In this document: positions 36,064-49,021 of the stretch, piece by piece
Layout: each line of letters begins with the position of its first letter
How positions within the stretch are numbered: the first letter of the stretch is position 1
DNA from: Bacteroidota bacterium
GTDB taxonomy: Bacteria; Bacteroidota; Bacteroidia; B-17B0; Aurantibacillaceae
Assembly: GCA_018267825.1 (NCBI GenBank)
Contig: JAFDXR010000003.1
Location: 559,206-623,205, forward strand
Length of the DNA stretch: 64,000 nt
Direction: 5' to 3'
The notes under the pieces: generated by a model
Database searches by the model: none
The model's input: only the letters and a program-made list of their open reading frames with translations
Told to the model about the DNA's origin: nothing
Position numbers and translations under genes: made by a program

Positions 36064-36819
36064 CTAAATCAGCTCGATGCCAATTTTTGCCAGCAGGTCC
36101 TGTTTATATGCCCTGGAAACAGGCACCTGAAGACCTGTCCGCATCACCAATGTACCACCATCGCCTTTCACATATTTTTCGGCCTGCGACAAGTTAACAA
36201 TATAGGAATTATGGACTCGCATAAACTGAAGTCCTTCGATCATCTTCTCAAATGTCTTGAGAGTCTTTGAGATCAATATCCGTTTCCTGGTTTCGAGATA
36301 AACATACGTATAATTTGAGTCGGCCTCGAAGCTTACCACTTCATTTGAATTTACAATAAAGATTCCCTCACTTGTAGGCAGCATCAATTTTCGTGGCTGA
36401 ACCTCCTTCCACTGTGCCATCATCCGTTGCATATCCTCTGAAGCGTGTCCTGACAGTTTGGCCAATCGCTTCTCTGCTTTGGCAACCGCGGCAACCAATT
36501 CCTCAATTTCAATAGGTTTCAGGAGGTAATCTACTGCTTCTACTTTAATGGCATGAATAGCATAATGATTATATGCCGTTGTAAATATCACTTCATAATC
36601 GTATTCCGGCAGTTTCTCGATCAATTGAAAGCCATTACCAAAAGGCATCTCAATATCCAGGAATAAAAGCTGAGGTCTGAGGGAATCGACAGCTACCCTG
36701 GCTTCTTCAATACCCTCATATATCCCCAGAATATCTACCTGGGGGCAATACCTACGGATAAGGATTTCAAGTGTTTTGGCACCTTTGAGTTCGTCATCGA
36801 CAATAATTGCTGTTATCAT
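36064..36819 (-). CDS. LytTR-type response regulator
   Basis: A 251-residue regulator. The receiver domain has the acid pair D8/D9, the phosphoacceptor D55 in LLFLDIEMPFG and the conserved lysine in LLKPIEIEE. A linker leads to a LytTR DNA-binding domain (about 145-250: FIVNSNEVVSFEADSNYTYV; FMRVHNSYIVNLSQAEKYV). It would bind DNA when phosphorylated by the kinase encoded just upstream, whose stop overlaps its start (4 bases). The pair is divergent from lanC, so control of the lanthipeptide genes is plausible but unproven. Confidence 0.93.
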   Translation of the reverse strand: MITAIIVDDELKGAKTLEILIRRYCPQVDILGIYEGIEEARVAVDSLRPQLLFLDIEMPFGNGFQLIEKLPEYDYEVIFTTAYNHYAIHAIKVEAVDYLLKPIEIEELVAAVAKAEKRLAKLSGHASEDMQRMMAQWKEVQPRKLMLPTSEGIFIVNSNEVVSFEADSNYTYVYLETRKRILISKTLKTFEKMIEGLQFMRVHNSYIVNLSQAEKYVKGDGGTLVMRTGLQVPVSRAYKQDLLAKIGIELI

Positions 36820-39800
36820 TTTTTGAAATTTATTTTGGGAATTACTATTTCTACGCGGGTACCAAGCGCTTCGCCGGCCGCATCTCTCTTATCAACAATG
36901 GTAACCTTCTGTTTGTTCTGAAACAAATGTCCAATAATCTCCAGCCTGTCGATATTTAAAGACAGTGCCATTGAATGATGTTTCCTGAAATGTTGTTCCT
37001 TAATTTTCTCAGACATTTTGCGTCCCACACCATTGTCATCAATCACACAAAGAATATAATTGCCTCCATCAATAAATGAAAGGGCAAGGTGACCTACATC
37101 CCGTTTGTGCATGAGACCATGCCAGATCGCATTTTCAACATATGGCTGTATCAGTAAGGGCGAAATACCATAGGACAATACATCGATGGCCGGATCAATA
37201 TATATAGTGTGTGTAAACCGGGTTTCAAATCTTAATTTTTCGAGTTCAATATACAATTCAATTGTTTCAATTTCTTTTTGGAGCGGGATAATTTCATGCC
37301 TGGAATTTTCGAGTACATTCCTGATCAATTTTGAAAACTTAGACAGGTACCTGTATGCCGATTCCGAATCGTTGGTGAGAACATAATGTTGTATGGAATT
37401 GATCGCATTGAATATGAAATGAGGATTCATCTGAGCTCTGATAGCCTTCAGTTCTATCCTTGCTATCTTTTTCTCCATTTCCGTTTTCTCCCGCTCTTTC
37501 TGTTGAAACTGATGTATACGGGTTCTGAGAATGCCATAAATTGTACCGGTCAGTACAATAGCAAGCCCGAGTATAAACCACCATGCACGCCAGAATGGTT
37601 GCCTGATTGTAAAAAGTATTCGTGCCGGTTCGGCACTGTTTACCATATCGCTATTGATGGCGTACACAAGAAATGTATAATCACCCGGTGGCAAAGTGGT
37701 GTACTGTACTGTTTGGTTACTTGTAAAATGCCAGGTCGTATCCAGTCCCGCAAGGCGGTACTTATACAGCATTTTGCCAGGACTTTTATAAGATAATCCG
37801 ATGTATTCGAAACGTATAAAATTCTCATCGTGCATCAGGACATGTTTCCCCTTAAGAGGATGTATTTTTTCGTTTACAACAAAGGAGGTCAGATAAACAG
37901 GTGGTTGTACCTTATCCAATTTAAGATGCACTCTGTCAAATACAGCCACGCCCCTATTTGAGGCAACATAGAGTTCATTGTTTAAAATACACATATCATT
38001 AATTTCATCCGACAACAAGCCATCTGTACTGCTGTAATTTTCGATTGAGAATTGATCATTGCCCGACAACGTGATTTTACTTATTCCATGGTTCGTGCCA
38101 ACCCACACTGTTTTATCTCCATCTATTAAAACGGTTTTACAAAGATTACTGGCCAGTCCATCCTTTGTCTGAATTCTCTGAAGGCGACTCCCTTTTTTTA
38201 TAATAAGGCCTGCCCCTTTGGTAGCCATCCAGATCCAGTGCCGCTTATCTTCTTTTATATCATCAATCCTATTATAAAGAAGCGGATTGTGGCGCCCAAG
38301 CGTATCTGATATTCCCGCGAAATTTAAAATAAGTCCCTGCGGAAGTCCAATCCATATGGAATCTCCTTTGACATAAAGAGAGCTCGCCCGTCTGAATGGC
38401 GGTCCCATTGGGACTAAGCGTGCGTTTTTGACATCTACTTTTGATAATCCAAGTGAATAGAGGGCATAAATTTCATTTTTTTCTGATACAATCAATTTCC
38501 TGATGTATACATCTGATGCCACACCTTTATTAATAACTTTCAAAAAGCGTCGCTCACCGCTTTCAGCGTCATAGCAGTAGGATTTATTATCCGTTATAAT
38601 CAGAATATTTCCTCTCTCACCAAATACTGTAGCCTTGACTCCATTTAGAAATCTATTCTGTCTGACACCATGCTGTTTGCTGATGCTATTCATGATCCGA
38701 TTCTCCGTGAAGCATAATATGCTATCATGAAATGGTGTTATAGAATAAACCTTTTCTCCGGATAATCCTGTAGCCGCATTATAATATCCAAATGAAAGGG
38801 ACGGAGTATAAAACACACCATGGTTCAAGGTTGTAAACCAATAACCGCCTTCCCGATCCTGGCAGACAGAACTAACAGAACTGTTTTCCAGATAATGAAC
38901 CGGTGCTTTACTCAGGTCTCCCCTGGGGAATACGGAAACCCCCTTTCCGGTAGTTCCAAGCCATATATTCTGATCTTTATCGGCATACAAACTAATCAGA
39001 TCGGCATCATAAAAAAGAAATGATAATTTTTCGTTTTCCAATTGATACACATTTCCACCATCAAAAAACAAGATTCTGTTCCCTGCCGGAATAGCCTGTC
39101 TGAATTGCTCTCCAAGGTTTGAAGTATAGCTCTCCAACTCCGCTCTCCGGAAGGTACGGCCAAGTATCAGATGCCTGCTGGTCCTCAATTTCATGCCATC
39201 AGGGCCCACTTTATCTTCATTACCATCATATTTTAGCAATCCCCTGCCTGTAACTCCCCAAACCCATTCCTTTGGTTTGGGTGACCAGAATTGCCAACCG
39301 GTTTCATTAAAAATGATCGGAATCACATTCTTATAATTATTCGCGGGAGGCACTTTATAAAATGCATCGCCAAAGTTGTAAGCCACAAACAAAGTATCAG
39401 CATCATCGACATATATTGATGTAATGACACTGGAATGAATACTATTGCTCAGTACATTGTTTCCTTCGATACTGACAATGGTATCGGAATCAGGGTCATA
39501 ATACGCCAATTTGCGGGCCATTCCAAAAAACCAGATTCGCTGCCGGTGATCTTCATATATGTTGAAAATTGTATTGTCCGGCAATCCGTGTTCACTCGTA
39601 AACTGTCTGAACGAATACCCGTCATAACGGCATACACCGGCATCTGTACAAAACCACATATATCCCTTGGAATCCTGAATAGCTTTATACACTTCGGAGC
39701 TCGAAAGTCCATCACTAACCGAGTAATTGCGGAACGGTATATTCTGTGCCCCGCAAAAAAAAGTGCACAGTAACAGGGCAGTTATTAATCTCAATATCAT
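36816..39800 (-). CDS. Propeller-sensor histidine kinase (LytS type)
   Basis: A 994-residue sensor. A signal peptide (MILRLITALLLCTFFCGAQ) is followed by periplasmic two-component propeller repeats (YKAIQDSKGYMWFCTDAGVC; TVLIDGDKTVWVGTNHGISK), a Y_Y_Y domain near 640-730 (YRLAGLDTTWHF), one membrane helix near 740 and a cytoplasmic kinase. The phosphoacceptor segment is NPHFIFNAINS near residue 789 and the ATPase N-box is QPYVENAIWHG, with CVIDDNGVGR following. Start ATG 39800 gives the signal peptide at once; a longer frame to 39854 does not. This hybrid layout resembles carbohydrate sensors of the phylum, but the ligand is not known. Confidence 0.9.
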   Translation of the reverse strand: MILRLITALLLCTFFCGAQNIPFRNYSVSDGLSSSEVYKAIQDSKGYMWFCTDAGVCRYDGYSFRQFTSEHGLPDNTIFNIYEDHRQRIWFFGMARKLAYYDPDSDTIVSIEGNNVLSNSIHSSVITSIYVDDADTLFVAYNFGDAFYKVPPANNYKNVIPIIFNETGWQFWSPKPKEWVWGVTGRGLLKYDGNEDKVGPDGMKLRTSRHLILGRTFRRAELESYTSNLGEQFRQAIPAGNRILFFDGGNVYQLENEKLSFLFYDADLISLYADKDQNIWLGTTGKGVSVFPRGDLSKAPVHYLENSSVSSVCQDREGGYWFTTLNHGVFYTPSLSFGYYNAATGLSGEKVYSITPFHDSILCFTENRIMNSISKQHGVRQNRFLNGVKATVFGERGNILIITDNKSYCYDAESGERRFLKVINKGVASDVYIRKLIVSEKNEIYALYSLGLSKVDVKNARLVPMGPPFRRASSLYVKGDSIWIGLPQGLILNFAGISDTLGRHNPLLYNRIDDIKEDKRHWIWMATKGAGLIIKKGSRLQRIQTKDGLASNLCKTVLIDGDKTVWVGTNHGISKITLSGNDQFSIENYSSTDGLLSDEINDMCILNNELYVASNRGVAVFDRVHLKLDKVQPPVYLTSFVVNEKIHPLKGKHVLMHDENFIRFEYIGLSYKSPGKMLYKYRLAGLDTTWHFTSNQTVQYTTLPPGDYTFLVYAINSDMVNSAEPARILFTIRQPFWRAWWFILGLAIVLTGTIYGILRTRIHQFQQKEREKTEMEKKIARIELKAIRAQMNPHFIFNAINSIQHYVLTNDSESAYRYLSKFSKLIRNVLENSRHEIIPLQKEIETIELYIELEKLRFETRFTHTIYIDPAIDVLSYGISPLLIQPYVENAIWHGLMHKRDVGHLALSFIDGGNYILCVIDDNGVGRKMSEKIKEQHFRKHHSMALSLNIDRLEIIGHLFQNKQKVTIVDKRDAAGEALGTRVEIVIPKINFKK

Positions 39801-39948
39801 TGTCACCTCATAAAAATACAGTTTTATGGGATTGCAATTCTGGTAACGGCTCATTCAAATCTGTGAAGTACTAATTCTGCATTTCTTTTACACACTAAAT
39901 GCAACAATTTCACGTCACAGGCAGAGTGCCTTCAGATTCAAATCACCT

Positions 39949-41124
39949 ATGATTGACCAGACAGATCTAATACTGAACAAAATCATCGAGATTGAAAATG
40001 CCCTCCCTGAGAGGATGAGCGATATCGGACTTCATACAGGAGAAAGCGGGAAAGTGTTATTCTATTGTTACCTATCACACTACCTGAAAAGCAATGCGTA
40101 TGACTCCAAAATCGAACATACAATCGAAAACATATTTGAGCGCCTTGACACTGACACAATCAACCCCACTTTTTGCAGGGGCTTATCCGGATTGGTCTGG
40201 ACAATGAACCATTTAAGAAAAACTGGCATGCTCGAGTTCGATGATGTTTTCGCTGATCTACACGACACACTTAAGAAATCTGCTTTGGGATTATCTGCTG
40301 CCGGTGAATTTGATTTTTTACACGGCGCCGATGGCATTATTTATACATTAATGGATAACAATGCACTGGATGAAAAATCAGCAAACGCCTGGCTTAATTC
40401 TCTATACGATTTCGCCATCAGGGATTCCCGCGGATGTGTGTGGGAAACGCTGACTGACGCATCAACCGGGAGTAAAAGCCTTAATCTGAGTTTATCACAT
40501 GGCATATCCGGAAAGATTATTCTGCTCTCGGAAGTTCTGAAACGTTTTCCGGAAAACGAATTAACATACGAACTCCTGGATGGCGCAGTCAATTTCCTTC
40601 TCTCTTGTCGCAACCCGGCAGGCTTCCGATCGTGGTTTCCATCTGTGAAACAAACAGATCAACCGGGTGAGATAAGCAGACTGGCCTGGTGCTATGGAGA
40701 CCTCGGAAACGCTATCTGTTTGTGGCGGGCGTCAGAAAGCCTGCAAAGAACAGACCTGAAGCAACTCGCTATTGAGCTATTGCTGAATGCCACCAAACGG
40801 AGAAATCCTGATCAGGAAAAAATTATTGACGCTGCTTTTTGCCATGGAGCATCCGGCGTCTCGCATATCTTTCGTCATTTTTACCAGAAAACCGGCATGC
40901 CTGAACTGGAACAGGCCAGCAACTATTGGATGCAAAAAACCCTTGACTTTTCAAGTCATAAAGATGTCGCAGCCGGTTACAAGTCTTTCGATACAAGGGC
41001 TGAAATTTTCAAAAAGGAAGACAGCTTCCTGGAAGGGAATATAGGAATTGCCATGGTGATGCTGAATCACCTCCAACCCTTCATGTCTGAAAACCATTGG
41101 AATGAGTGTTTTCTCATTCATTAA
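39949..41124 (+). CDS. Lanthionine synthetase C family cyclase (LanC)
   Basis: A 391-residue LanC-like cyclase that adds cysteine thiols to dehydroalanine/dehydrobutyrine to close thioether rings. The zinc ligands are all visible: C248 in WCYGD, and C298 and H299 in FCHGASG. Six glycine-rich turns of the alpha/alpha barrel can be followed (FCRGLSG 75-81, LHGADG 124-129, SHGISG 183-188, WCYGDLG, FCHGASG, LEGNIG 361-366). Length is close to NisC. It is divergent from the histidine kinase gene and precedes the precursor gene by 87 bases. Stand-alone LanC plus a separate LanB defines class I. Confidence 0.93.
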   Translation: MIDQTDLILNKIIEIENALPERMSDIGLHTGESGKVLFYCYLSHYLKSNAYDSKIEHTIENIFERLDTDTINPTFCRGLSGLVWTMNHLRKTGMLEFDDVFADLHDTLKKSALGLSAAGEFDFLHGADGIIYTLMDNNALDEKSANAWLNSLYDFAIRDSRGCVWETLTDASTGSKSLNLSLSHGISGKIILLSEVLKRFPENELTYELLDGAVNFLLSCRNPAGFRSWFPSVKQTDQPGEISRLAWCYGDLGNAICLWRASESLQRTDLKQLAIELLLNATKRRNPDQEKIIDAAFCHGASGVSHIFRHFYQKTGMPELEQASNYWMQKTLDFSSHKDVAAGYKSFDTRAEIFKKEDSFLEGNIGIAMVMLNHLQPFMSENHWNECFLIH

Positions 41125-41160
41125 AATATTGAATATACCAACGCGCGGGTACTATTCACT

Positions 41161-41195
41161 AGCGGGAGCCGAAAAGCTAAAGAGTAGGCAATTAA
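41161..41195 (+). promoter_or_regulatory. Shared upstream element, copy A (before the precursor gene)
   Basis: This 35-base stretch carries AGCGG, GCCGAAAAGCTAA, AGAGTAGGCA and ATTAA. The same blocks in the same order occur at 47008-47044 before the T9SS protein gene, with only two substitutions and two single-base insertions. It ends 16 bases before the ATG at 41212. GCC and GGC could pair across the middle, so it may be a leader RNA element; a protein binding site is equally possible. Confidence 0.75.
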
Positions 41196-41211
41196 ATACA
41201 AACATAACAAT

Positions 41212-41391
41212 ATGAAAAAAGTAAATTTAACAGGTAAACTTTCTATCAAGAAAGACACTGTAGTAAAGCTTAACAACGAACAAATGAACATGATCATCGG
41301 TGGATCTATTGCCACTGGTAAATCCTGCTGTGTATACACTACCAGCGATCCATTACATTGCAGCCCAACCGCTGCATCAGGCTGTTGTTAA
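41212..41391 (+). CDS. Class I lanthipeptide precursor (LanA), 59 residues
   Basis: A short gene encoding a typical Bacteroidota lanthipeptide precursor. Leader: MKKVNLTGKLSIKKDTVVKL then NNEQMNMIIGG, with the K-L-x-I-K-K-x-T pattern and a double-glycine cleavage site at residues 30-31. Core: 28 residues (32-59) with five cysteines (39, 40, 50, 58, 59) and nine Ser/Thr (32, 35, 38, 43, 44, 45, 51, 53, 56), ending SGCC. It lies between lanC and lanB, with LanT carrying a matching C39 peptidase. The ATG is 16 bases after the shared element, and a strong terminator follows the stop within 6 bases. Its product has not been identified here; antimicrobial activity is inferred from the class. Confidence 0.93.
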   Translation: MKKVNLTGKLSIKKDTVVKLNNEQMNMIIGGSIATGKSCCVYTTSDPLHCSPTAASGCC

Positions 41392-41396
41392 CATTC

Positions 41397-41432
41397 AAAT
41401 CAGGGAGCGCTATTGATAGCGCTCCCTGATTT
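41397..41432 (+). terminator. Strong hairpin between the precursor gene and lanB
   Basis: AAATCAGGGAGCGCTA, loop TTGA, TAGCGCTCCCTGATTT is a perfect 16-bp stem with a TTTCTT tail. It starts 6 bases after the precursor stop. It can act as a partial terminator that keeps precursor mRNA abundant relative to lanB-lanT, and also protects the mRNA 3' end. Confidence 0.9.
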
Positions 41433-41518
41433 CTTATGCAACTATAAGCCTTATCGCAAAGAAAAATCGTAAAACACCATTCTGCAATTTGCATCAGTGA
41501 CACTCATTATAAGGACAA

Positions 41519-44500
41519 ATGGAAGCAACAACAGATTCACCAGAATTTCATCCAAAATTTATCGTCCGGACACCTGTCCTGCCTTTCTCCGATTCCATGC
41601 CGAACGACAAATCCGCCTTTTTCGAACTAACCAAACAGGATATTTTTAAAGAAGCCATATATCTGGCATCAGCCACACTATACAACGAAATGATTAAGTG
41701 GCATGAGGGTTTATTATCCGACTCCAAAAGCATTCACAAACTTACTATTTCGCTCTATAAATATTACACGCGGATGCAGAACCGGTGCACGCCGTACGGT
41801 TTGTTTGCAGGGCTCGGTTCCGGCAAATGGGCTGAGACGAACGAAGTTACATTCAGCAATAATCCCAGGAATGCTCTGGAAAGGAAAACCAGATTAGACA
41901 TGAATGTACTATGTACACTGGCACAGGAAATTGCAAAACTCGATTGTGTCCGGAACGCGTTAAGATATTATCCCAACAACAGTCTTTATAGGATAGGGAA
42001 CAATTACAGATACATAGAGCACTTCTATTTGCAAAACAGACGGTTTCACAATATCAGTAAAGTAGAGTTCTCATCATATCTCGAGGAGGTGCTGCAAGCA
42101 TGCAGATCCGGACTGAAACACTCTGAAATTACAGAACTTCTTATCGGAAATGATATCAGTGAAAGTGAAGCATCATCCTTTGTAGATGAACTCATCGCCA
42201 TTCAATTATTGGTTAACCATCTTGAGCCCACTTTAACCGGTCCTGACTATTTTGAAGTACTGCATACTCACTTAAAAAACATACAAGCAGAACAGCCATC
42301 AAACGAGCTCAACCGAATCCTTGATGCTTTGCATACAACAAAAATCCTCATCAAAAAAACCGATGTTGATATATTAAACCCGATTGAAATGTATTGGAAT
42401 ATATTTCAACAACTCCAAGACATTCTGCCTGGCCTGACAGAAACCAATTTATTTCAAACGGATTTGTATAAAAAATATGAATCCGCTACCCTGGATCATA
42501 CTGTTCATGCCCAGCTATCCTCTACGATTCGCTTTCTCAGAAAAATTTCGCCCAAAACCACCATAAAACCACTCGATGACTTTATACATCGCTTTTACGA
42601 GCGGTATGAAGATTATGAAGTGCCTCTGCTAACGGCGCTTGATGCTGAGGCAGGCATTGGTTATCCGAATAAAAACAATCAGGGGGTTAATGATCTTATA
42701 GACGATGTTTACCCTCGCCAACATAACGAAGTCAACACGCTCAGATGGGATGCTCTTCAGACTGCCACTTTGAAAATCCTTTGTGATGCCATACGTCAAA
42801 ATAAAAAAGTGATTAACCTCAGTGAAGCAGATTTCGAAGGCATCGACTTTTCAGACGGTACTCAACCTCCTTCTTACTCTGTACTATTCAAAGTCATAGA
42901 CAGATTCTCTCATAAACTGGAAATCCAGATCATCGGTGGAAGCAGCGGTCTTAATCTGATGGGACGTTTTGCCGGTGGCCATAAAGAACTGGAAAACATG
43001 GCCCTGGAAATTGCTGACTTCGAGCAGCGGCAGTTTCCTGATAAAATTCTGGCAGAAGTTGTGCATCTACCGGAAAGCAGAACCGGAAACATCCTTGCCC
43101 GACCCCGCTTCAGGAATTACGAAATACCATACCTCGCCAAAAGTTCCGTCGATACCGCTCACCAGATACATGTAGAAGATCTGACCCTTAAAATCAGGAA
43201 CAATAAACTGATTCTGTTTGACAAAAGGTTAAATAAAGAAATTATACCCCGCATGGGGAACGCACACATGTTCAGTGTTAATAGCCTGCCGGTATATCAT
43301 TTTCTTTGCGATTTGCAGGCTCAAAATGCCACCACCCTGTCGTTAGGCTTTAACTGGGGCATTCTGACCAATCAATTTGCTTTTCTTCCGCGGGTTGAAT
43401 ACAACAACACTATCCTGAGTACAGCCAAATGGCGGCTGAAGAAAGATGATCTTAAAAAACTGCAGGATAAAAAAACGGGCTTAAAAGAAAAACATCAGGC
43501 CTTCTCCGAACTCAAGATCCACTCAGGCTTGCCAGATAAGTTCCTTATCGTGGACGGTGACAATGAATTGCTGATCGACACACAAAACGATATTGCCATT
43601 GATGTGTTTATAGACACCATTAAAAACCGGGAAGAACTTACTTTGGAAGAATACCTTTTTGAAGATGAATCCGCACTTGTAAAAGATTTATCTTTCAGGA
43701 GTTATACCAATGAATGCCTGGCCGTTGTTTTGAATGGTCATGTCGAAAAATCCGAAAACATAACTCCTGTTTCAAAGTATAATAGCCAGGCTCTATTCCC
43801 GGCAGGCAGCGAATGGTTATATTACAAAATCTATTGTGGCGTAAAGACTGCCGATACGATACTGACTGAAAAAATCAAAGCTCTGACCGAGGGCTTTCTT
43901 GGCGAACGCTGTATCGATAAGTGGTTTTTTATTCGCTACGCTGATCCGGAAACGCATCTGCGGTTCAGGCTGCATATTACTGATTTTAAAAAATACGGAC
44001 ACATTATACAAAGCGTGAATGAAGCCCTGCATCCACTTCTGGAACAGCACCTTGTATCAAATATACAATTAGACACCTACAAGCGAGAACTCGATCGATA
44101 CGGAGACAACTCCATTCATCTTGCTGAAGACTTATTCTATCACGATAGTGAGTTTGTCGCCGGAATGCTTAACCTGCTTGACCCGGAATCCGGCGGCATT
44201 ATTCGCTGGAAAATGGCCATCCGATCCGTTGATAGTTTACTCGAAGATTTCAATTTAACCCTTGAGCAAAAGCACAGGCTGATTGAAAATCTCAGTCAGG
44301 CATTTTTCAGGGAACATGGTGCTCAGAAAGAACTCAAGGTACTGCTTGATACAAAATTCAGAACCCTGAGACCAGATGTTGAAGACGCATTGAATAAACA
44401 ACTGGACTTCGGGAAAGACTACTATCCCGCCATTGAATTGCTTAATCGCAGAAGTGTGTTGAATAAACCAATCGCAGGCAAAATTCTTGACATGCAGCAT

Positions 44501-44686
44501 CACGGTACACTCATGCTTGAATTGAATCAACTCCTGGCGAGTCTGTTGCACATGAATCTGGACCGTCTGTTTATGGGACGCAACAGAACCAATGAGTTTG
44601 TGGTTTATGATCTCTTGTCCCGCAGTTACAAAAGTTCGTTGGCCCGCATGAAGCAGCAGGAAAAGCCCATAGTTTTATGTAAGTAA
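41519..44686 (+). CDS. Class I lanthipeptide dehydratase (LanB)
   Basis: A full-length 1055-residue LanB. The N-terminal glutamylation domain (about 15-660) has the family motif R85..NRCTPYGLFAG (to 98), and the C-terminal SpaB_C / thiopeptide-type elimination domain (about 750-1045) has KWFFIRYADPETHLRFRLH near 799-817. It would add glutamate from glutamyl-tRNA to Ser/Thr of the core and eliminate it, making dehydro-residues. One polypeptide holds both parts, unlike the split enzymes of pinensin-type clusters. It starts 127 bases after the precursor stop and is followed 10 bases later by lanT. ATG 41519 is used; AT-rich leader, no clear Shine-Dalgarno. Confidence 0.94.
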   Translation: MEATTDSPEFHPKFIVRTPVLPFSDSMPNDKSAFFELTKQDIFKEAIYLASATLYNEMIKWHEGLLSDSKSIHKLTISLYKYYTRMQNRCTPYGLFAGLGSGKWAETNEVTFSNNPRNALERKTRLDMNVLCTLAQEIAKLDCVRNALRYYPNNSLYRIGNNYRYIEHFYLQNRRFHNISKVEFSSYLEEVLQACRSGLKHSEITELLIGNDISESEASSFVDELIAIQLLVNHLEPTLTGPDYFEVLHTHLKNIQAEQPSNELNRILDALHTTKILIKKTDVDILNPIEMYWNIFQQLQDILPGLTETNLFQTDLYKKYESATLDHTVHAQLSSTIRFLRKISPKTTIKPLDDFIHRFYERYEDYEVPLLTALDAEAGIGYPNKNNQGVNDLIDDVYPRQHNEVNTLRWDALQTATLKILCDAIRQNKKVINLSEADFEGIDFSDGTQPPSYSVLFKVIDRFSHKLEIQIIGGSSGLNLMGRFAGGHKELENMALEIADFEQRQFPDKILAEVVHLPESRTGNILARPRFRNYEIPYLAKSSVDTAHQIHVEDLTLKIRNNKLILFDKRLNKEIIPRMGNAHMFSVNSLPVYHFLCDLQAQNATTLSLGFNWGILTNQFAFLPRVEYNNTILSTAKWRLKKDDLKKLQDKKTGLKEKHQAFSELKIHSGLPDKFLIVDGDNELLIDTQNDIAIDVFIDTIKNREELTLEEYLFEDESALVKDLSFRSYTNECLAVVLNGHVEKSENITPVSKYNSQALFPAGSEWLYYKIYCGVKTADTILTEKIKALTEGFLGERCIDKWFFIRYADPETHLRFRLHITDFKKYGHIIQSVNEALHPLLEQHLVSNIQLDTYKRELDRYGDNSIHLAEDLFYHDSEFVAGMLNLLDPESGGIIRWKMAIRSVDSLLEDFNLTLEQKHRLIENLSQAFFREHGAQKELKVLLDTKFRTLRPDVEDALNKQLDFGKDYYPAIELLNRRSVLNKPIAGKILDMQHHGTLMLELNQLLASLLHMNLDRLFMGRNRTNEFVVYDLLSRSYKSSLARMKQQEKPIVLCK

Positions 44687-44696
44687 TACACACCGC

Positions 44697-46910
44697 ATGC
44701 GCAGATTTCCACATTTTATGCAAACCGATTCGATGACATGCGGACCCGCCTGCCTGAAGATGGTTGCAAAATATTACGGAAAAAATTACAGCCTGGATGA
44801 TCTGGTAAGACTTAGCAGAACAGATCGTTCCGGGAGCAGTCTGCTCGGACTTTGCAACGCTGCAGAAAACCTGGGTTTCCGCGCAAGTGGCGCCAAAATT
44901 ACATTCTCAGGTCTGACTACTTCCGTAAAACTGCCCTGTATCATTCACTGGAACAACAGTCATTTTGTTGTTGTATACAAAATAGACAAAAAATTCATTC
45001 ATGTCTCAGATCCCTCCCATGGCCAGTTGAAATACACGCACGATGAATTTACCAAAAGCTGGCTGGACGAAGAGCAGGGAGCGGGCATTTCACTGATACT
45101 GGAAACAACACCGGAGTTCTATCAAAACAATCCGAAAAGCAATGACGAAACCCGGAAAAAAGGTTTTCCCTTTCTATTCGGATATCTTCTAAAGCACAAA
45201 AAGCCGATCATACAAGTACTTCTGGGGCTTCTGTTGGGAAGCATACTGCAACTGATCTTTCCATTCCTCACACAAAACATTATCGACAAAGGGATCAGGA
45301 ACAAAGACATTGGTTTCATTTATCTGATCCTGTTCGCACAGCTGATGGTCTTTTCCGGACGGACAACGATTGAAGTCATCCGCAGCTACATCCTCATGCG
45401 TGTAAGCAACGACATCAACATCAACCTGGCACGTGATTTCTTCTCCAAACTGATGAGATTACCTATTCGTTATTTCGACACAAAGATGACTGGTGATATC
45501 ATGCAGCGTATAGATGATAATCACCGGATAGAGAACTTTCTGACCGGGTCATCACTTAACACGTTGTTCTCCATGCTCAGTTTCATTGTATTCAGCATCG
45601 TTCTTGCCTGGTATAGTTTTCTCATATTTGCCGTCTTCTTTATCGGCACATTGTGCTATTTTCTGTGGATTCTCTTCTTCATGAAACGTCGGGCCGACCT
45701 GGATTACAAACGATTCAACCAGAGCAGCATCAATCAAAGCAAGATCCTGGAACTAATTAACGGTATGCAGGAAATCAAACTACACAATGCCGAAACACAA
45801 AAACGCAGACAATGGGAAGTGGTGCAAACCAGGCTTTTTGAGATCACTCTGAAAAGCTTATCACTCAGCAATGTACAAAATACCGGATCCTCCTTGATCA
45901 ATGAGCTAAAAAACATTATCATCACTTTCATTGCAGCCAGACTTGTCCTGGATAATCACATAACACTCGGCATGATGCTTTCTGTAAGTTACATCACCGG
46001 ACAGCTTAACTCTCCCGTTCTGGAAATGGTTAATTTCATACAACGCTGGCAGGATGCAAAACTCAGCCTGGAACGGCTCAATGAAATTCATCAAAAAGAA
46101 GAAGAAGACGCCCCCTCAAAATCACTACTGGCAGAAATACCTGAGGACCTATCCCTTCATTTTGAAGGTGTTTCCTTCAGCTATGGCGGGGCTGCAAACC
46201 AGGTGGTACTGGAAGACATATCAGTACAATTCCCGGCGCACAAAGTTACAGCTATTGTCGGAAGCAGTGGCAGCGGCAAAAGTACGCTGATGAAACTTTT
46301 GCTGCAGTTTTATGCGCCAACCAGCGGTGACATATTTTTAAGTTCCGATTCCGGCGAAAAAAAAACGCACATAAATCTCAGTCAGGTCCAGCCACACAGC
46401 TGGCGTGCAAAAACAGGTGTTGTTTTACAGGAAGGCTACATCTTCAATGATACAATAGCAGGTAACATTGCCGTAGGCGAAGAAACAATCGACTATGCAA
46501 AATTGGAACAAGCCCTCCGGATTGCCAACATCCATGAATTTATCAAAAGCCTTCCTCATGGCTATAACACCCGGATTGGCCTGGAGGGCAATGGCATCAG
46601 TACCGGTCAGAAACAGCGCATCCTGATTGCCCGGGCGGTATATAAAAACCCGCAGTACCTGTTTTTTGATGAGGCCACCAGCGCTTTGGATGCAAACAAC
46701 GAAAAAATAATCATGAACAACTTAAATCAATTTTATAAAAACAAGACCGTCATTGTTATAGCTCATCGATTGAGCACCGTGAAAAATGCCGATCAGATTA
46801 TTGTTCTCGACAAAGGCAAAATTATTGAGAGAGGAAATCATAAAGAACTCTCCGCAATCAAGGGTGCTTACTACGAGCTTGTGAAAAATCAGCTGGAACT
46901 CGGCAGTTGA
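44697..46910 (+). CDS. LanT-type ABC exporter with C39 leader peptidase
   Basis: A 737-residue bacteriocin exporter of the PCAT kind. The N-terminal C39 peptidase has catalytic Cys15 (DSMTCGPACLKM), His89 (NNSHFVVVY) and Asp105 (HVSDPSHG), and so should cut after Gly-Gly of the precursor. Residues about 155-440 hold the membrane helices. The ATPase has Walker A GSSGSGKS near 520, Walker B YLFFDEATSALD near 655 and the histidine loop in IAHRLST. The ABC signature is STGQKQ rather than SGGQ. It is encoded 10 bases after lanB. It is the only visible export gene of the cluster; there is no separate LanP protease. Confidence 0.95.
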   Translation: MRRFPHFMQTDSMTCGPACLKMVAKYYGKNYSLDDLVRLSRTDRSGSSLLGLCNAAENLGFRASGAKITFSGLTTSVKLPCIIHWNNSHFVVVYKIDKKFIHVSDPSHGQLKYTHDEFTKSWLDEEQGAGISLILETTPEFYQNNPKSNDETRKKGFPFLFGYLLKHKKPIIQVLLGLLLGSILQLIFPFLTQNIIDKGIRNKDIGFIYLILFAQLMVFSGRTTIEVIRSYILMRVSNDININLARDFFSKLMRLPIRYFDTKMTGDIMQRIDDNHRIENFLTGSSLNTLFSMLSFIVFSIVLAWYSFLIFAVFFIGTLCYFLWILFFMKRRADLDYKRFNQSSINQSKILELINGMQEIKLHNAETQKRRQWEVVQTRLFEITLKSLSLSNVQNTGSSLINELKNIIITFIAARLVLDNHITLGMMLSVSYITGQLNSPVLEMVNFIQRWQDAKLSLERLNEIHQKEEEDAPSKSLLAEIPEDLSLHFEGVSFSYGGAANQVVLEDISVQFPAHKVTAIVGSSGSGKSTLMKLLLQFYAPTSGDIFLSSDSGEKKTHINLSQVQPHSWRAKTGVVLQEGYIFNDTIAGNIAVGEETIDYAKLEQALRIANIHEFIKSLPHGYNTRIGLEGNGISTGQKQRILIARAVYKNPQYLFFDEATSALDANNEKIIMNNLNQFYKNKTVIVIAHRLSTVKNADQIIVLDKGKIIERGNHKELSAIKGAYYELVKNQLELGS

Positions 46911-47007
46911 AATAGGCTGAATCTGTTAATCACTAATTTAAAAATGTGAACTACTCAGATTGTATTTTCTCTGTTCTGAAAATCCGACACATTTGGCGCC
47001 ACAAACA

Positions 47008-47044
47008 AGCGGTCGCCGAAAAGCTAACAGAGTAGGCACATTAA
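47008..47044 (+). promoter_or_regulatory. Shared upstream element, copy B (before the T9SS protein gene)
   Basis: AGCGG, GCCGAAAAGCTAA, AGAGTAGGCA and ATTAA in the same order as at 41161-41195, with two extra C bases and two changes. It ends 12 bases before the ATG at 47057. Both genes then begin with ATGAAAAA. Confidence 0.75.
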
Positions 47045-47056
47045 TCACATAAACCA

Positions 47057-49021
47057 ATGAAAAATTTAAAAACGATCCTCGGAGCTTCAATGCTTATGAT
47101 GTGTGTCGGGCACAGTGCCTTTTCGCAACGCACCATCTCAGGACAGATTACTTTAAACCCATGTATCTTCCCTATGGACCAGGACGATTTCAGCAACGCA
47201 ACGCCATGGAGCCAGATAGACCCAATTACTACGGGAAATGGGCGCATTATTGTAAACACAACACAAAACAACATTCTCATCACTCCTAACGAAGCAAGCG
47301 GAAGCGGCTGTATGGCACCCGGCCAGGCAGGTGCCTGCAGTAACCGTGAAATGCGCATTTACAGACCCCTGACTGGAACTGTAAGCAACACTTCATGGAG
47401 AACTGAATTCGTGATTAATATCTCAACAGGAAACGCACCGAATTACGGCCTTATTGGATTAACATCCGGAACACAAGACCCTGAAGGAAATTACTCACCC
47501 TCTTCAGCTTGGGCATGTAACAGCGGCTCAGCAAATAGTGGTGTTTGGTCGGCAACCTCACAGGATGGTATTTTTGCATCACTTGTGGCGTTTGGCACAA
47601 ACCAGATTCCAAACAGTTTTAGCTCGCAGCCTTTCACACCGGCTAATCAAACCGCGGCAGCCAATGCCACCTCAACCAGTGGCTGGTGTATATACGGTCA
47701 TGCAAAAAAAGCCGGCGGAAGTTTTTATCCGGCAAGCTCTCCGTTCAACTCCTCACAGTTAAACTGGTCATGGGGCATTCCATTGCCTGCTTTAAAGACA
47801 AACTATTTCATCCGTCTGGAACGCCTCAGTGCCAACACATGTATGATCAGCGTATTTTCGGATGCAGCAAGAACAATCCATATTCCTATGTCGCCGCAAT
47901 GCTTCCAGATCGATCCGAATATTCAGGGATTAAGCAACGTACAGAGCTTTCAGCATCAAAGCGGATCGTTTATGAGAAGTTTAACAGGTGTTATCAGTGA
48001 CCTGAATATATTCAATAACTGTCCGGGAATTCCAACCCTCACACTCACTGCATCAAGCCCCTCGGTGACATGTTCGGCAAACACCGTAACGCTTACTGCT
48101 ACCCCTGGCTTTTCAACATACACATGGAATCCGGGAAACATAACCACCACAAGCAATACATTGGCCGTAAGTCCGGGTTCTACAACCCAATACTCTGTAA
48201 CAGCCGTGTATAATGCTGTTGCCTATCCATGCTTTCATCCAACAGCTTCCGTTCAGGTTGGCGGCATGCCAAATTACCTGACGTTCAGTCCACTCTTTGC
48301 CATTACTTCAGGCTTACCTCCGGCCAGCCAGTCGTTCAGTGTAGAAGTAACACCAGTGGCAGGATCAACAAATCTGGACATATCAACAGCACGCACCAAC
48401 ACCGGTTATAACTATGGATACCTCTGGAAAGTAGAAACACTTGATCCGGCAAACAACAACAATGTGTTATGCTCAGTAATCAACCCATCGAACTGGTGGA
48501 ACAACGCTTCAACAAATGATTTCCCGGGCTATAGCAGTAACTCAAGTGGCGGTTGCTCTGACAACACCTCCATCACAACGGGCGCAGGAGTATTCGATAT
48601 TTCACATAAATATCGCATTACCCGTGGGGTATGGAACCCATGCGCTTACACAGAAGCTACGGTGGCTGTGTCATACTGTACCAATTGCAGAACATCTAAC
48701 GGCGGACCATCCCTTGTCATTGAGCAGGGTCCGGTAACCCGGTCAGAAAGAGTTCCTGTAACGGAAGTAAGTCCACAAAAAACACAAAGCACTGTTATGA
48801 TTGCCCCTAATCCAAATAATGGTGAATTCAATATCCTGGTAGAAAACAACCGCACAGAATACACTTACGAAGTTTACGACAGCTATGGTGCATTGCTGCT
48901 GCAAAACACCAGTGCCGAGGAGAAACAAGCCGTTTCTATCCACGATAGTAAGCCTGGCGTATACATCCTCAAAGTTAACCTCGCCGGAGAAGTTTACATC
49001 AAACGGGTCATCAAAGAATAA
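47057..49021 (+). CDS. T9SS-sorted exported protein at the lanthipeptide locus
   Basis: A 654-residue exported protein. Signal peptide: residues 1-23 (SAFSQ end). Residues about 30-325 are beta-rich with many Asn/Ser/Thr and resemble a concanavalin-like lectin sandwich (LPALKTNYFIRLERLSANTC). An Ig-like/PKD-like unit follows (LTASSPSVTCSANTVTLTAT), a second beta-region with cysteines, and a C-terminal type A sorting domain (MIAPNPNNGEFNILVENN; KPGVYILKVNLAGEVYIKRV). The product should pass the outer membrane through T9SS. Function is unknown. It shares an upstream element with the precursor gene, so it is probably controlled with it. It follows lanT by 146 bases and is ended by a strong terminator. 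Confidence 0.85.
   Translation: MKNLKTILGASMLMMCVGHSAFSQRTISGQITLNPCIFPMDQDDFSNATPWSQIDPITTGNGRIIVNTTQNNILITPNEASGSGCMAPGQAGACSNREMRIYRPLTGTVSNTSWRTEFVINISTGNAPNYGLIGLTSGTQDPEGNYSPSSAWACNSGSANSGVWSATSQDGIFASLVAFGTNQIPNSFSSQPFTPANQTAAANATSTSGWCIYGHAKKAGGSFYPASSPFNSSQLNWSWGIPLPALKTNYFIRLERLSANTCMISVFSDAARTIHIPMSPQCFQIDPNIQGLSNVQSFQHQSGSFMRSLTGVISDLNIFNNCPGIPTLTLTASSPSVTCSANTVTLTATPGFSTYTWNPGNITTTSNTLAVSPGSTTQYSVTAVYNAVAYPCFHPTASVQVGGMPNYLTFSPLFAITSGLPPASQSFSVEVTPVAGSTNLDISTARTNTGYNYGYLWKVETLDPANNNNVLCSVINPSNWWNNASTNDFPGYSSNSSGGCSDNTSITTGAGVFDISHKYRITRGVWNPCAYTEATVAVSYCTNCRTSNGGPSLVIEQGPVTRSERVPVTEVSPQKTQSTVMIAPNPNNGEFNILVENNRTEYTYEVYDSYGALLLQNTSAEEKQAVSIHDSKPGVYILKVNLAGEVYIKRVIKE

What the first reader, a model, noticed from the sequence alone, without database searches (positions are those of the whole stretch)
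39949..46910. Compact class I lanthipeptide locus with a full set of LanC, precursor, LanB and C39-LanT
Seen: LanC with C248, C298 and H299; a precursor with Gly-Gly leader; a single-chain LanB with both halves; LanT with C15, H89 and D105. Known: these four parts are enough for a class I lanthipeptide. Characterised Bacteroidota lanthipeptides are few (pinensins from Chitinophaga have split dehydratases). The unsplit LanB with C39-type export differs from that plan. No LanFEG immunity, regulator of the NisR/K type, LanP or oxidative tailoring gene is visible.
Basis: partly seen in the sequence, partly recalled or inferred. Interest (0 to 1): 0.88.

Follow-up and report, generated by a model that had tools for sequence, protein, structure and literature searches.

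The report
Bacteroidota lanthipeptide locus with RNA leader
The locus is an ordinary-looking, complete gene set for a ring-containing (lanthionine) peptide of a kind already catalogued in Bacteroidota, but the peptide gene carries a small knotted RNA element just before its start codon that recurs in front of many such peptide genes across the group, a link that I found in no paper I could search.

Summary
The locus is a new member of a known kind. LanA scores above the cut-off of NCBI's curated class I lanthipeptide leader family NF038153. Walker et al. 2020 already describe Bacteroidota class I precursors with an LxLxKx5L leader, GG site and clustered C39 protease, and two Bacteroidota LanA/B/C sets have been made to work in E. 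coli.

The RNA is an H-type pseudoknot by covariation. A model built without LanA-linked copies finds it 15-25 nt before lanthipeptide precursors in several families. A strict descriptor hits 16 of 61 distinct precursor genes, against 0.015 expected and 0 of 120 control ORFs. Function of the RNA is inferred, not shown.

The parts
39949..41124 (+). LanC cyclase, 391 aa, Zn ligands C248, C298, H299 and active-site H184
   Evidence: PF05147 E 3e-37; residues
41159..41190 (+). DUF805b RNA (RF02914) as H-type pseudoknot: stem A 41160-41163 with 41176-41179, stem B 41168-41170 with 41187-41189; 22 nt before lanA ATG
   Evidence: Rfam 39.9 bits, cut-off 35.6; R1 E 1.9e-8; covariation
41212..41391 (+). 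LanA precursor, 59 aa; leader 1-31 ending GG, core SIATGKSCCVYTTSDPLHCSPTAASGCC
   Evidence: NF038153 40.2 bits over cut-off 22; LxIxKx5L motif
41397..41432 (+). 16-bp hairpin just after the lanA stop, between lanA and lanB; weak U tail; probable partial terminator or processing site
   Evidence: -27.8 kcal/mol, z -8; similar hairpins after relatives' precursor genes
41519..44686 (+). LanB dehydratase, 1055 aa, glutamylation and elimination domains on one chain
   Evidence: PF04738 + PF14028; aligns to NisB 4wd9 and 9g04
44697..46910 (+). LanT: C39 peptidase (Q9, C15, H89, D105) + ABC exporter, 737 aa
   Evidence: PF03412, PF00664, PF00005; residues
47006..47038 (+). second DUF805b pseudoknot, before a T9SS-sorted protein gene (47057-49021)
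   Evidence: Rfam 38.9 bits; R1 E 4.9e-12

Best explanation
A self-contained class I lanthipeptide locus. LanB dehydrates Ser/Thr of the core using glutamyl-tRNA, LanC adds the Cys residues to make thioether rings (up to five), and LanT cuts after the GG and exports the product. The precursor gene is a separately tuned cassette inside the cluster: a DUF805b pseudoknot ends 22 nt before its start codon and a strong hairpin follows its stop. The enzyme and export steps are inferred from family membership and conserved residues. The RNA structure is shown by covariation. That the pseudoknot sets lanA output (most likely at translation initiation or mRNA stability, giving more precursor than enzyme) is inferred from its fixed place just outside the ribosome footprint and from tandem precursors each carrying a copy.
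For: Families and residues. Similar loci in relatives. Literature for the plan. RNA: Rfam; pseudoknot covariation 91% of cells paired, 58 double-change cells against 16.9 shuffled, and in LanA-linked copies alone stem B 100% paired with double changes; a model built without LanA-linked copies finds it 15-25 nt before LanA in G000, G050, G025, G278, G377 (two), G107, G350 and in further genomes; 16 of 61 precursor genes against 0.015 in shuffles and 0 of 120 control ORFs; spacing to ATG 18-24 nt in 62 of 77 copies; tandem precursors each with own copy.
Against: No expression or product data. No membrane-fusion partner next to LanT, although relative G074 has one; 13 HlyD_3 matches lie elsewhere in the genome. 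No immunity gene found. About three quarters of precursor genes tested lack the RNA under the strict descriptor. The RNA also precedes unrelated genes (T9SS proteins, rhodopsins), so it is not lanthipeptide-specific. Many f22 loci are close relatives, so counts are not all independent.
Confidence: 0.85

Rival explanations
1. The cluster is a non-lanthipeptide RiPP system (for example LanB acting as a glutamylating or amino-acid-adding enzyme) and LanC is a bystander.
For: LanB relatives with other chemistry exist (own knowledge); NCBIfam reports the C-terminal domain as thiopep_ocin, a model shared with thiopeptide enzymes.
Against: LanB has both full domains and key residues; LanC keeps its Zn triad; LanA fits the class I lanthipeptide leader; core has 5 Cys and 9 Ser/Thr.
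Confidence: 0.07
2. DUF805b before lanA is a small riboswitch or protein-binding leader that switches exported peptide genes on or off with a cell signal, rather than a constitutive booster.
For: Compact H-type pseudoknot with conserved GAAAA and GAGTA loops, as in small ligand-binding RNAs (own knowledge); one to twenty copies per genome, many before exported products.
Against: No metabolic gene theme among targets; no start-codon-hiding hairpin seen; many copies per genome and per tandem array are unusual for a riboswitch.
Confidence: 0.4
3. The repeated motif is a DNA element (promoter or sigma-factor site) and not an RNA.
For: It lies close upstream of genes and has two conserved boxes.
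Against: Two interleaved helices covary; variants CTC..GAG and CAC..GTG keep pairing; spacing is fixed to the start codon, not to a promoter box (TAnnTTTG in 10 of 77, no fixed place).
Confidence: 0.05

Closest known systems
Bacteroidota class I lanthipeptides with LxLxKx5L/GG leader and C39 protease (Walker et al. 2020, PMC7268733; NCBIfam NF038153)
   Same: Leader motif, GG site, LanB + LanC + C39 exporter in one cluster
   Different: Core sequence is its own; closest LanB found is 41% identical; no HlyD gene in the cluster
Chryseobacterium ChmABC and Runella RuiABC (PMC9993889)
   Same: Bacteroidota LanA/LanB/LanC sets shown to dehydrate and cyclise
   Different: Three rings each; here five Cys; sequences not compared directly
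Pinensins (Chitinophaga)
   Same: Class I lanthipeptide from Bacteroidota
   Different: Split LanB in pinensin; one chain here
Nisin (NisB/NisC)
   Same: LanB and LanC domains and catalytic residues align
   Different: FNLD leader, NisP, NisT without C39, NisFEG and NisRK (own knowledge) have no counterpart here
DUF805b RNA, Rfam RF02914
   Same: Both window copies pass the gathering score
   Different: Rfam's covariance model holds only stem A; stem B, the CTC..GAG and CAC..GTG variants and the link to precursor peptides are added here

Membership tests
Class I lanthipeptide locus | Dehydratase with glutamylation and elimination domains | tested here: met
   PF04738 and PF14028 on one chain, NisB alignment
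Class I lanthipeptide locus | LanC with Zn ligands | tested here: met
   C248, C298, H299 aligned with NisC
Class I lanthipeptide locus | Precursor with class I leader and Ser/Thr/Cys core | tested here: met
   NF038153 over cut-off; 9 S/T, 5 C
Class I lanthipeptide locus | Dehydration and ring formation | not testable with these tools
   needs expression and mass spectrometry
GG-leader/C39 subgroup of Bacteroidota class I | C39 peptidase with Q, C, H, D and GG cleavage site | tested here: met
Pinensin-type class I | Split LanB | tested here: not met
   single 1055-aa chain
DUF805b RNA (RF02914) | Score over Rfam gathering cut-off | tested here: met
   39.9 and 38.9 against 35.6 bits
DUF805b RNA (RF02914) | Regulates the downstream gene | not testable with these tools
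   Rfam type 'Cis-reg' is a prediction; no experiment found

The most novel reading that the evidence does not exclude
A single pseudoknot RNA class (DUF805b and its stem variants) is a shared 5' leader of exported peptide genes in Bacteroidota, including class I lanthipeptide and other GG-leader bacteriocin-like precursors, and controls their output together, so that one RNA can be used to find and to switch such peptides.
Probability: 0.45. Interest if true: 0.75.

Novelty: new member of a known kind. Interest (0 to 1): 0.48.

Why it matters
The cluster adds one more candidate product to a large, barely tested group. The RNA link matters more: an orphan RNA class gains a set of target genes, its pseudoknot is defined, and it becomes a handle for finding unannotated precursor peptides in Bacteroidota and for asking how these bacteria control peptide export.

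Tried and rejected
Bacteroidota -7 box (TAnnTTTG) upstream of the RNA: 10 of 77 against 3.4 in shuffles, no fixed distance, dropped. Claim that the RNA marks secreted proteins in general: the crude signal-peptide score is met by 17 of 39 window ORFs as well, so no enrichment is claimed. The intrinsic-terminator scan did not call the lanA hairpin, whose U tail is weak. Literature: no held paper with the term DUF805 appears to concern the RNA; the paper I recall as describing it (Weinberg 2017) is not held; searches for lanthipeptide with riboswitch or pseudoknot in Bacteroidota gave nothing relevant. Structure prediction was not used: all enzymes fall in solved families.

Full report
Four genes lie in order on the plus strand: LanC 39949-41124, LanA 41212-41391, LanB 41519-44686, LanT 44697-46910. 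Pfam gives LANC_like, both Lant_dehydr domains on one chain, and Peptidase_C39 plus ABC domains. NCBIfam gives the precursor 40.2 bits for NF038153, class I lanthipeptide leader, over a cut-off of 22. The genome holds one LanB and one C39 peptidase, both here.

The reading as a class I lanthipeptide locus is well supported, but it is not new. Walker et al. 2020 report that a number of Bacteroidetes class I precursors have an LxLxKx5L leader motif, that many of those leaders end in Gly-Gly, and that a C39 protease is often in the cluster; they also note that nearly a quarter of class I LanCs they found are in Bacteroidetes (PMC7268733). The window's leader reads LSIKKDTVVKL and ends in GG. Sets from Chryseobacterium and Runella were made to dehydrate and cyclise in E. 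coli when a matching GluRS/tRNA-Glu pair was added (PMC9993889). In the same taxonomic family, G074 carries LanC, LanB, LanT and a HlyD-like gene in a row, and G025 carries LanA, LanC and full-length LanB (assigned by eye from the protein starts). The nearest LanB found in the genome collection is 41% identical.

What was missed is the RNA. Rfam finds DUF805b (RF02914, type cis-regulatory) at 41159-41190 with 39.9 bits and at 47006-47038 with 38.9 bits, cut-off 35.6. Stem B of the first ends 22 nt before the lanA start codon; that of the second ends 19 nt before a gene for a T9SS-sorted protein. The genome has eight clear copies.

The element is an H-type pseudoknot. In 37 copies from the window's family, stem A (for example TAGC..GCTA in the window) and stem B (GCC..GGC) interleave. 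91% of cells pair against 71% in shuffles; 58 cells have changes on both sides against 16.9; slid versions of the structure pair 12 to 49%. Rfam's covariance model contains stem A only. In 18 copies that lie before precursor genes, stem B is paired in every sequence, with CTC..GAG, CAC..GTG and ACC..GGT versions.

The link to precursor genes was tested in two ways. First, a covariance model was built only from copies not linked to LanA and run on 25 genomes that have a precursor. Among about 145 matches it placed the element directly before the precursor in G000, G050, G025, G278 (the best match of all), G377 twice, G107 and G350 (precursor positions). With roughly one match in 600 genes (my estimate, taking about 3,800 genes per genome), well under one such coincidence was expected for some 60 precursors. 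Second, a strict sequence-and-pairing descriptor was applied to the 75 bases before 61 distinct precursor genes: 16 carry the element 16 to 28 nt before the start codon, against a mean of 0.015 in shuffled sequence and none of 120 other ORFs. The descriptor was widened after seeing some variants, so the shuffles, not the first design, are the control. The LanA-linked copies cover five taxonomic families (f1, f2, f5, f22, f48), although the f22 loci are partly close relatives. In L169 five tandem precursors each have a copy.

The element also precedes other small GG-leader peptides, such as five tandem genes in G360 and two with the curated leader NF047798, 'bacteriocin-like protein', and larger secreted proteins and two rhodopsin-like genes. 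It is therefore not specific to lanthipeptides. Spacing to the ATG is narrow, 18 to 24 nt in 62 of 77 copies, which argues for action at translation initiation or on the mRNA 5' region. This is inference.

A 16-bp hairpin (41397-41432, -27.8 kcal/mol, z -8) follows the lanA stop, and precursor genes of relatives often end in similar hairpins. Stem-loops after the precursor gene that let part of the transcription run on are known from other lanthipeptide operons (own knowledge). Pseudoknot and hairpin together make lanA a cassette with its own controls.

Open points: no membrane-fusion or outer-membrane partner is in the cluster, nor an immunity gene; 13 HlyD_3 matches are elsewhere in the genome. 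The product, its rings and its activity are unknown. Whether the RNA-precursor link has been published in a paper not held here could not be checked.

Noticed in passing
window 36064-39854, minus strand: A LytTR-type two-component pair (sensor with Reg_prop/Y_Y_Y/His_kinase domains, LytTR response regulator) lies divergently 95 bp from lanC; response-regulator-like genes also flank the precursor loci in G076 (L067) and G025 (L068), judged by eye.
   Followed up: partly
window 47006-47038 and 47057-49021: Second DUF805b copy before a T9SS-sorted 654-aa protein of unknown function directly after the lanthipeptide cluster; [quoted passage not shown]
   Followed up: partly
L103 (G000:C19), 66-aa ORF: Another small ORF in the same genome with a DUF805b leader, a GG and a Cys-containing tail (RGGEAGCSVSDHGWECHAGIRW), next to a caspase-like gene; possible further peptide-protease pair.
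   Followed up: no
L041 (G085:C6) and L055 (G070:C70): DUF805b leader directly before rhodopsin-like genes in two relatives (by eye from sequence).
   Followed up: no
L125 and L127 (G360:C205:22300-25000): Tandem array of five 42-46-aa GG peptides, each with its own DUF805b pseudoknot; the one tested matches no NCBIfam family.
   Followed up: partly
L031/L063 (G050:C163): Three L1a-leader peptides with few Cys beside a C39 exporter, no LanB or LanC on the contig part held; may be a GG-peptide system that shares the leader without lanthionine chemistry.
   Followed up: no
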